From Candidatus Zipacnadia bacterium (GTDB lineage Bacteria > Armatimonadota > Zipacnadia > Zipacnadales > UBA11051), in the NCBI GenBank assembly GCA_029821145.1, contig JALGTY010000001.1, forward strand, positions 1 to 48,795: 48,795 nt of DNA, read 5' to 3'. The first letter of the stretch is position 1. Every line of letters begins with the position of its first letter. Positions 19,094-33,942 of this stretch are shown piece after piece. The translations under genes and the position numbers were made by a program. Under the pieces are notes generated by a model, which was given only the letters and a program-made list of their open reading frames with translations, was not told where the DNA came from and ran no database searches.

Positions 19094-21097
19094 ATGGCAG
19101 TGGATGGAAGCCGCAGTTCAGAAACCGAACCTGCAGGTCTTGACCAGCCGCGCTATCCGCTGATTGGCGTGACCGGCCGCAGCCTGATTCTCGCCATAAT
19201 CCTTTGCTACCTTGCCAGCTTCTGGATCAACCAGAGCGAGGTCATCGCGCATTTCTGCCAGATTACCGAAGCCGCGCCCCCGATTCCCGCCGTCGGCATA
19301 CTGCTTGCGCTGGTATTGCTGAATCCCCTTGTGCGGCGCATCAGCAAGCGCCTCTCCCTCGACCGCCGCGAGATCATCATGATCTATGTGTTCCTGGCCG
19401 TAGCCACCACTGTTACCGGCTGCGGCATTGGCCGCTTCTTTCTCAACATCCTGCCGACGCTTTACTACTTCGACACACCGGAAAATAACTTCACATCTTT
19501 GCAGAGCCATCTGCCTGACTGGATGGTGCCAAAGGATCATGAGGTCGTTCGCAAGCTCTACGAGGCCTCTGAAGCCGGTGCGGTGCCGTGGGGAGCGTGG
19601 GCTCTGCCGCTTTTCATGTGGGGAATCTTCTTCCTGGCGGTGTGGGTCTGCATGCTCTGCATCAGCACCATCTTCCGCCGTCAGTGGTCGGAGAAGGAGA
19701 AGCTGACCTATCCTTTGCTGTACCTGCCGATGGACTGCACCCAGGGCGTTGACGGGCCGAACCTGGTGGTCGACTTTCTGCGCAGCCGCATTATGTGGAT
19801 CGGCTTCGCTATTGCTTTCTTGTTCAATATCACCAATGTCATGAATTCCTACAACCCGGCTTTCACGGCGCTGGGCAGAGCCTACGACATCGGCGGGCTG
19901 TTCACCGAGCACCCCCTCAGCGCACTGCAGCCCATGGCCATCGTGTACCGCCCGGAGATAATCGGCTTCGGCTACCTGGTGCCCACCGAGATCGCCTTCA
20001 GCGTCTGGGCCTTCTACTTCCTACTCAAGTTAGAGACATTGCTTGCGGCGATGGCAGGGCTACAGATAGCCGGCTATCCGTTCTGGCAGGAGCGTGGCCT
20101 GGGCGCTTACGTAGCGGTCTGCCTGCTGCTCACGTACATCGGACGGCATCACATCGCTGACGTGCTGCGCAAGGCCTTCACTGGCGACGACAGCATTGAC
20201 GATTCCGACGAGCCGATGAGCTACCGGGTGGCGATCTTCGGCGGGCTGCTGGCTTTTGCCGTGGTCATTGGCTGGATGAAGCTGGCAGGGATGGCGCTGT
20301 GGCTGGCGATTCTGTACATGGTCCTGGTCTTCATGGTGGCGGTAGTCTATGCCCGGATCCGCGCCGAGGTCGGCGTCCCGCTGATCTGGATGTTCCCCTT
20401 TTACCAGACCTTCAAGGGCATCCGCTACTTCCTCGGTTCCGAAGCCCTCAAATACAACAATAGCTGGCGAAGCGCGACTATCTTTGCCACATTCGTATTC
20501 CTCTCGCGCGGGTATTACTCGTCCATGATGGCCTACCAGATAGACGGCTACCGGCTGGCGCGAGCGACTGGTGTGAAACAGACGGGGATGAACTGGGTGC
20601 TGGTAGTGGCGCTGATAGCCGGCTTCACGGTCTCGATGACGGGCCTGTTGCGCGCTTATTACGAATACGGCGCTGGCGGGCTGGGTCGCATGTCCGGATG
20701 GGGCTCGGGGATTGCACAACAGGAGTACACTGCGGTGGTGGACTATGCCAAAGCGGCGGTGCGGCCCGAGACACCGCGCATGCTCGCTGCCAGCTCCGGC
20801 TTTGTGGTAGCCGTGGGCCTGATGCTCTTGCGCATGGCGTTTTTGCGCTTCCCACTCCACCCGCTGGCCTTCTGCATGATTCTGTCCTACAGCGGGCCAA
20901 TCTGGGGACCGTTCTTCATCGTCTGGCTCATCAAGACCATTGTCTTCAAACTCGGCGGCATGCGCGCCTATCGCCAACTCATCCCCGGCTTTGTCGGCCT
21001 GGCGGTGGGCCACTATCTGACCGCCGGTGTGGTATTGAATATCATCGGCATTTATGGCGGTGAAAGTGTCCGCCTCTACCACGTCATTTTCGGCTGA
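19094..21097 (+). CDS. polytopic membrane protein, DUF6785/DUF6784-like, paralog 1
   Basis: 667 aa, many TM segments, highly similar along its length to 21373..23388. Confidence 0.75.
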   Translation: MAVDGSRSSETEPAGLDQPRYPLIGVTGRSLILAIILCYLASFWINQSEVIAHFCQITEAAPPIPAVGILLALVLLNPLVRRISKRLSLDRREIIMIYVFLAVATTVTGCGIGRFFLNILPTLYYFDTPENNFTSLQSHLPDWMVPKDHEVVRKLYEASEAGAVPWGAWALPLFMWGIFFLAVWVCMLCISTIFRRQWSEKEKLTYPLLYLPMDCTQGVDGPNLVVDFLRSRIMWIGFAIAFLFNITNVMNSYNPAFTALGRAYDIGGLFTEHPLSALQPMAIVYRPEIIGFGYLVPTEIAFSVWAFYFLLKLETLLAAMAGLQIAGYPFWQERGLGAYVAVCLLLTYIGRHHIADVLRKAFTGDDSIDDSDEPMSYRVAIFGGLLAFAVVIGWMKLAGMALWLAILYMVLVFMVAVVYARIRAEVGVPLIWMFPFYQTFKGIRYFLGSEALKYNNSWRSATIFATFVFLSRGYYSSMMAYQIDGYRLARATGVKQTGMNWVLVVALIAGFTVSMTGLLRAYYEYGAGGLGRMSGWGSGIAQQEYTAVVDYAKAAVRPETPRMLAASSGFVVAVGLMLLRMAFLRFPLHPLAFCMILSYSGPIWGPFFIVWLIKTIVFKLGGMRAYRQLIPGFVGLAVGHYLTAGVVLNIIGIYGGESVRLYHVIFG

Positions 21098-33283: not shown

Positions 33284-33557
33284 GCTTATGGCGAAACACC
33301 TCCCGGCGGCCCGGGCGAACTTCCCCGGCCGCTTCACGATTGCCAATCAAGCGGCAGGATTCCTGCCACTAATCCAAACGCGAAAATGCGTAGCAGTAGT
33401 TCCCGGCCACGCATTATAGCAGAAAAATCTTTGAGAGGCTACCGTTGTACTTGAAATCATTGGGTGTGGAGATTGCCGATGTCGGAAGTTGGGTGCTGGG
33501 CCGCACTGAACGGGGACAGTCTCTCGGAAAGGCTACGGTACCCTCACCCCCGACCTC

Positions 33558-33578
33558 ACCCACTCCTTCGGAGTGGGT
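33558..33578. repeat. intergenic hairpin acccactcc-ttc-ggagtgggt
   Basis: 9-bp perfect stem within CCCTCACCCCCGACC...GGGAGAGGGGAG context. Confidence 0.55.
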
Positions 33579-33691
33579 ACCCGCCGCAGGGAGAGGGGAG
33601 CAAGGCAACGACAGACGGCAGGTGCGCGGCATGGACTGCACAGGCTCAAGGTCCGCTTTGCGCCCTTCCAAAGAAAAAGGCAAAATAATGC

Positions 33692-33720
33692 TTGACATGG
33701 GCTGGGGTGTTGTCTATACT
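33692..33720 (+). promoter_or_regulatory. near-consensus sigma70 promoter TTGACA-N17-TATACT
   Basis: TTGACA 33692-33697, 17-nt spacer, TATACT 33715-33720. Confidence 0.85.
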
Positions 33721-33726
33721 GCGTAC

Positions 33727-33942
33727 AGGGTTGTATAGGAATAGTGGCTGCAGCCTAAACATAGCTTCACTCGCAGCACCCCACCCTAGTCTGCATCTTA
33801 GCTCGAAAAAGTCGCCCCCTTGACTTGCGCCCAGGCTAAGAGCAGACATGTGCCGCCCGACACCGTAACCAACTACGCAGGCAGGGCGGACGAAGTGCAG
33901 CCCGCCGGGCTTCTCCCACAGCCCGGCGGGTGTTGTCTTTTA
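33727..33942 (+). ncRNA. candidate structured small RNA of unassigned family, about 215 nt
   Basis: Strong promoter, nested hairpin 33789-33847, ccgccc/gggcgg pairing 33853-33889, intrinsic terminator 33901-33942, no convincing ORF. Confidence 0.6.
33901..33942 (+). terminator. intrinsic terminator of candidate ncRNA
   Basis: cccgccgggc-ttctcccaca-gcccggcggg perfect 10-bp stem then TGTTGTCTTTTATT. Confidence 0.8.

What the first reader, a model, noticed from the sequence alone, without database searches (positions are those of the whole stretch)
33692..33942. Independent structured small RNA with a near-perfect promoter and terminator
Seen directly: TTGACA-N17-TATACT, then about 215 nt with no convincing ORF, then a perfect 10-bp GC stem followed by TGTTGTCTTTTATT. 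Inside, gtctgc(33789-33794)/gcagac(33842-33847) encloses cttagc(33797-33802)/gctaag(33835-33840), which encloses aagtc/gactt around a GCCCCCTT loop. A second pairing ccgccc(33853-33858)/gggcgg(33884-33889) and a 5' palindrome ggctgcagcc add further structure. The next gene has its own promoter-like site about 200 nt further on, so this looks like a stand-alone transcript and not a leader. Long nested hairpin plus strong promoter is compatible with a divergent 6S-type RNA, but I could not derive a convincing closing stem and central bubble; the family is unassigned.
Basis: partly seen in the sequence, partly recalled or inferred. Interest (0 to 1): 0.75.

Follow-up and report, generated by a model that had tools for sequence, protein, structure and literature searches.

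The report
New order-wide bacterial small RNA gene
A 215-letter stretch between two genes is very probably a stand-alone RNA gene with its own promoter and terminator; it is found in nearly every related genome, matches no catalogued RNA family, and is distinct from the 6S, SRP, tmRNA and RNase P RNAs that the same genome carries elsewhere.

Summary
Window 33692-33942 is a free-standing small-RNA gene: TTGACA-N17-TATACT, an RNA of about 215 nt starting near 33727, three hairpin domains and an intrinsic terminator. Covariance models find it in 36 of 41 sampled genomes of the same order, in all 19 good-quality ones, and in 2 of 5 further genomes of the class. No convincing match appears in the 246 other genomes of the phylum. 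Base pairs covary strongly: 31 of 37 pairs show changes on both sides, and the covariation score is 0.56 against 0.06-0.11 for slid controls. The -35 and -10 boxes are conserved; neighbouring genes are not. Neither the window copy nor any of 12 relatives matches Rfam 15. It is an undescribed RNA family. Its most conserved letters lie in C-rich loops (CCUCC/CCCCC and GCGCCCAG). The favoured but untested mechanism is a constitutive, trans-acting RNA that pairs with G-rich ribosome-binding sites, as RoxS/RsaE or RNAIII do; an RNA-protein particle is the main rival. No transcript, target or function has been shown.

The parts
33692..33697 (+). -35 box TTGACA
   Evidence: Sequence, scan. Conserved as TTGACA or TTGACT at a similar distance in the homologues examined.
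33715..33720 (+). -10 box TATACT (17-nt spacer)
   Evidence: 26 of 34 homologues score at least 10 of 12 in the 60 nt just upstream, against 1.4% of random 60-mers; 5 more do once the window is moved 8 nt.
33727..33942 (+). predicted small RNA (about 215 nt), stand-alone non-coding RNA gene
   Evidence: Covariance model hit 33725-33938. The start is inferred from the -10 box and the end from the terminator; no transcript data exist.
33732..33761 (+). P1: 5' hairpin UGU-A-UAGG (33732-33739) / CCUA-A-ACA (33754-33761)
   Evidence: Found by alignment; 84% of cells paired, 4 of 7 pairs with changes on both sides in 26 sequences. Not part of model R1, so not imposed on alignment A9.
33759..33777 (+). 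conserved linker ACAnAGCUnCAnUCGCAG at and after the 3' strand of P1
   Evidence: Alignments A2, A9, A10.
33789..33847 (+). P2: long hairpin, 33789-33794/33842-33847 and 33796-33802/33835-33841
   Evidence: Two stacked helices, 84-88% of cells paired, 11 of 13 pairs with changes on both sides.
33815..33837 (+). most conserved core CCCCCUnGACUUGCGCCCAGGCU: C-rich apical loop plus large 3' internal loop of P2
   Evidence: Exact (one N) in 8 of the first 10 homologues (L002 and L005 differ slightly); order-wide consensus CCYCC ... GCRCCCmG.
33853..33889 (+). P3: GC-rich hairpin 33853-33858/33884-33889 with conserved CGCAG(C/G) in its loop
   Evidence: 91% of cells paired, 5 of 6 pairs with changes on both sides.
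33900..33942 (+). intrinsic terminator: 10-12-bp GC stem with C-rich loop (TTCTCCCACA) and T-rich tail
   Evidence: 11 of 11 pairs with changes on both sides, 97% of cells paired.

Best explanation
It is a single-copy, vertically inherited gene for a trans-acting, non-coding small RNA of about 215 nt. It is made from a near-consensus housekeeping (sigma-70 type) promoter and ended by its own terminator. Shown by comparison: the gene is real, structured, order-wide, non-coding and independent of its neighbours. Inferred mechanism: P1, P2, P3 and the terminator act as a stable scaffold that presents C-rich single strands, namely the P2 apical loop (CCCCC or CCUCC), the P2 internal loop (GCGCCCAG) and the C-rich terminator loop. 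These pair with G-rich (Shine-Dalgarno) segments of target mRNAs and block or tune their translation, in the manner of RoxS/RsaE or RNAIII, possibly helped by Hfq where Hfq is present.
For: Homologues in 36 of 41 order genomes and in 19 of 19 of those at least 90% complete and at most 5% contaminated, plus G041 and G042 of the class. 31 of 37 pairs with double-sided change, covariation score 0.559 against 0.061-0.108 slid and 0.199 shuffled. In a ranking of all column pairs the top 12 are all proposed pairs. Conserved -35/-10. Flanking genes conserved only within families: ABC ATPase, FolC, FeoB, Gfo/Idh, methyltransferase, RpsE, PBP2. No shared ORF position. C-rich motifs: CCYCC in the P2 region in 22 of 33, GCxCCC in 24 of 33, CCC in the terminator loop in 26 of 33. 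Ribosome-binding sites found in the window are mostly GGAGG/AGGAG. Hfq gene present in the own genome and 9 of 12 relatives searched. C-rich regions are known to pair with SD sequences (PMC4409812; PMC2837412).
Against: No RNA-seq, no target and no conserved mRNA partner was found. Several f3 members and L055 lack the CCYCC loop and keep GCRCCCmG better, so the C-rich apical loop may not be the business end. At 215 nt with rigid structure and near-universal presence it also looks like the RNA of an RNA-protein particle. Hfq was not detected in f2 and f4 genomes that keep the RNA. Some members have a poor U-run after the terminator.
Confidence: 0.5

Rival explanations
1. It is the RNA of an unknown ribonucleoprotein or a protein-sequestering (6S/Csr-like in logic) housekeeping RNA of this lineage. 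The conserved internal loops bind a protein and the RNA does not act by pairing with mRNAs.
For: Single copy in the order, as widely detected as 6S, SRP and RNase P RNAs in the same genomes. Near-consensus constitutive promoter. The large asymmetric loop GCRCCCmG is the best-kept feature even where the apical C-run is lost.
Against: No protein partner known. Flanking genes are not conserved, so no genetic link to a protein. No conserved GGA loops seen in the alignment, so not a Csr-type sponge.
Confidence: 0.33
2. It is a cis-acting leader or riboswitch: aptamer plus terminator controlling the downstream gene.
For: Structured domain followed by a terminator, same strand as the next gene in the window.
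Against: Downstream genes differ in identity and strand between families and even within f1. The terminator lies about 290 nt before the next start codon, and a weak promoter-like site lies between them.
Confidence: 0.05
3. It is a divergent copy of a known housekeeping RNA (6S, SRP, tmRNA or RNase P).
For: Size and strong promoter fit 6S.
Against: All four are present elsewhere in the own genome, above Rfam cut-offs: 6S C314, SRP C492, tmRNA C526, RNase P C397. No Rfam match to any of these for the window element at E<=10, nor for the element in 12 relatives at E<=1. Topology is three hairpins in a row.
Confidence: 0.04
4. It is a short protein-coding or dual-function transcript.
For: Some members contain ORFs of 40-70 codons.
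Against: No ORF shares position, start and length across members; the changes seen are those that keep base pairs.
Confidence: 0.03

Closest known systems
RsaE/RoxS and related C-rich sRNAs of Bacillota (PMC4409812), RNAIII C-rich loops (PMC2837412)
   Same: Stand-alone sRNA with conserved unpaired C-rich segments suited to pair with Shine-Dalgarno sequences.
   Different: No match to any Rfam family including theirs; different lineage; targets unknown here.
Yfr1 of cyanobacteria (PMC2190773)
   Same: Lineage-wide sRNA gene with hairpins, terminator and a highly conserved unpaired motif.
   Different: Yfr1 is 54-69 nt with the motif ACUCCUCACAC in a linker; this RNA is about 215 nt with the motif inside a hairpin, and its gene neighbourhood is not conserved.
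6S RNA (RF00013)
   Same: About 200 nt, strong promoter, single copy, widespread.
   Different: No model match, no single long hairpin with central bubble; a true 6S is encoded elsewhere in the same genome.

Membership tests
6S RNA (RF00013) | Match to the family covariance model | tested here: not met
   No hit at gathering nor at E<=10; the genome's 6S is at G000:C314:2325-2505, 73.2 bits.
6S RNA (RF00013) | One long hairpin with closing stem, central bubble and terminal stem | tested here: not met
   Covariation supports three consecutive hairpins plus terminator.
SRP RNA, tmRNA, RNase P RNA | Match of this element to the family model | tested here: not met
   No match of this element in Rfam; regular copies lie at G000:C492, C526, C397.
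Any Rfam 15 family | Model match of any member | tested here: not met
   Window and 12 homologous loci; the only match over a gathering score is a neighbouring RNase P RNA in L046.
Stand-alone bacterial sRNA gene (kind) | Own promoter and intrinsic terminator, conserved | tested here: met
Stand-alone bacterial sRNA gene (kind) | Conserved structure shown by covariation | tested here: met
Stand-alone bacterial sRNA gene (kind) | Detected transcript | not testable with these tools
   No expression data.
C-rich, SD-pairing regulatory sRNA (RsaE/RNAIII-like function) | Unpaired conserved C-rich segments | tested here: inconclusive
   Present in about two thirds of members by simple pattern (22 of 33 CCYCC), absent from several f3 members and L055.
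C-rich, SD-pairing regulatory sRNA (RsaE/RNAIII-like function) | Demonstrated mRNA targets | not tested
Riboswitch or leader | Conserved downstream gene on the same strand | tested here: not met

The most novel reading that the evidence does not exclude
A fifth core RNA of a deep bacterial lineage: an essential or near-essential ribonucleoprotein or regulatory RNA, universal in one class-level group and unrelated to any described family, with a function that no known bacterial RNA performs.
Probability: 0.15. Interest if true: 0.85.

Novelty: new member of a known kind. Interest (0 to 1): 0.55.

Why it matters
It adds a well-supported, uncatalogued RNA family to the few RNAs that are near-universal within a whole bacterial order. 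The lineage appears known mainly from metagenome assemblies. The covariance models and the conserved loop sequences give concrete handles (antisense pull-down, loop mutants, metatranscriptome reads) for finding what a lineage-wide housekeeping-level RNA does.

Tried and rejected
6S identity. SRP, tmRNA, RNase P identity. Leader or riboswitch. A pseudoknot between 5' GGGUUGUA and UGCGCCC, suggested by RNAalifold on the first ten sequences, dropped because f3 members lack the 5' GGG and no covariation supports it. A 5'-domain-only element in other leaders: partial model hits, for example before mutS in L057, inspected; most look like chance and only L057 is striking. Hits outside the class: G069 is a coding-gene end plus terminator; G053 hits at E 0.002-0.005 are near noise for 292 genomes. 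The taxonomic name could not be settled: a relative's record is an unnamed MAG, JAUVVY010000007.1, isolate CSMAG_1176, the CSMAG name being that of a cold-seep genome catalogue (PMC10491686). Armatimonadota of marine sediments would fit by size and GC (PMC10290634) but this was not tested. A viral-contig scan for the core failed on the server.

Full report
What was claimed and whether it is there. All features are present at the stated positions. The promoter TTGACA-N17-TATACT scores 11 of 12 and the terminator is recognised by a simple scan. Folding energy gives z = -3.6 with the terminator and only -1.8 without it, so energy alone would not have settled the matter.

Homologues. A DNA search of 61 genomes found clear homologues in the same family and short conserved matches in a second family. 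Aligned in one orientation they share the promoter, a nearly invariant segment CCCCCUnGACUUGCGCCCAGGCU, hairpins and the terminator. Three successive covariance models extended the set. The final tally with R3 is 36 of 41 sampled genomes of the order, including all 19 that are at least 90% complete and at most 5% contaminated, plus G042 and G041 of the class. The five order genomes without a clear hit (G001, G025, G034, G035, G038) are drafts of 76-90% completeness. Genomes of two other class families (f9, f10) and 246 genomes elsewhere in the phylum gave nothing convincing. Apparent hits in G069 and G053 were inspected and judged noise or unproven. Nearly all genomes carry one copy.

Structure. 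P1 is UGU-A-UAGG / CCUA-A-ACA. P2 is a two-part long hairpin whose apical loop is C-rich and whose 3' internal loop reads GCGCCCAG. P3 is a GC-rich hairpin with CGCAG in the loop, and the terminator follows. On 26 sequences 31 of 37 pairs show changes on both sides; 89.9% of cells are paired against 35-40% for slid controls; the covariation score is 0.559 against 0.061-0.108 (slid) and 0.199 (shuffled). The alignments were fitted to the models, which favours P2, P3 and the terminator somewhat. P1 was not in model R1 and still held on alignment A9. In a ranking of all column pairs the top twelve are all proposed pairs, with no sign of a further helix or pseudoknot.

Independence. A near-consensus sigma-70 promoter sits at the expected place in 26 of 34 homologues at 10 of 12 or better, against 1.4% of random 60-mers; five more appear once the search window is moved 8 nt into the model. 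In two f4 members the -35 box lies at the start of the model hit, so their RNA probably starts later and P1 is altered. Neighbouring genes are shared only within families: an ABC transporter ATPase in f1, FolC in f5, FeoB in f6, a Gfo/Idh-type dehydrogenase in f2, a methyltransferase in f3, and others (the names are the author's reading of the sequences, not a profile search). This fits a free-standing gene acting in trans, not a leader. No ORF shares a position, start and length among members.

What it is not. Rfam 15 has no match above chance for the window element at E<=10 nor for the element in 12 relatives at E<=1. The own genome carries regular 6S (C314), SRP (C492), tmRNA (C526) and RNase P (C397) RNAs above Rfam cut-offs. 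The 6S idea is therefore refuted, at least as the genome's 6S.

How it may work. The best-kept letters are in loops of P2. The 5' side is CCCCC or CCUCC in most members (22 of 33 by a simple pattern), the 3' side is GCRCCCmG (24 of 33), and the terminator loop is also C-rich (26 of 33). Ribosome-binding sites found in the window are mostly GGAGG/AGGAG, and an Hfq gene is present in the own genome and most relatives searched but was not found in f2 and f4. C-rich loops that pair with Shine-Dalgarno sequences are an established way of action: RoxS/RsaE (PMC4409812) and RNAIII (PMC2837412). A lineage-wide sRNA with a highly conserved pyrimidine-rich motif is known in cyanobacteria: Yfr1 (PMC2190773). 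On this ground a base-pairing regulator is favoured at about 0.5. The near-universal, single-copy distribution and the loss of the apical C-run in several f3 members leave an RNA-protein particle as a serious rival (about 0.33). Neither targets nor partners were tested.

Novelty and score. It is a new RNA family of a known kind (stand-alone structured small RNA). The existence of the family is well supported; its function is open.

Noticed in passing
L057 1501-1570 (G015:C197), before mutS: The leader of mutS in G015 carries a sequence very like the RNA's 5' domain (UUGUGCAGC...UUACACAUAGAUUUACUCGCAGGAGG), with the ribosome-binding site at its end and no promoter seen; could be chance or a shared leader element.
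   Followed up: partly
L046 (G013:C28:19746-20250 and 20625-20846, minus strand): In G013 the RNase P RNA gene lies about 375 nt downstream of the new RNA, same strand; two structured RNA genes in a row.
   Followed up: no
L103, L104 (G053:C33 and C144): Two copies of a similar short element (GCAUGUUUGAACAAGUUUUGUGCC...AAAGUUUUACAAAGC) in another part of the phylum, resembling the 5' domain weakly (E 0.002-0.005); possibly another small RNA family.
   Followed up: partly
L058 (G031:C27:180066-180421): In G031 the RNA gene is faced by a second, opposite-strand partial model match with a P1-like hairpin and terminator-like end.
   Followed up: no
window 33541-33600: Stretch CCCTCACCCCCGACCTCACCCACTCC...GGGTACCCGCCGCAGGGAGAGGGGA upstream of the promoter, with inverted-repeat character; looks like a dispersed repeat.
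   Followed up: no
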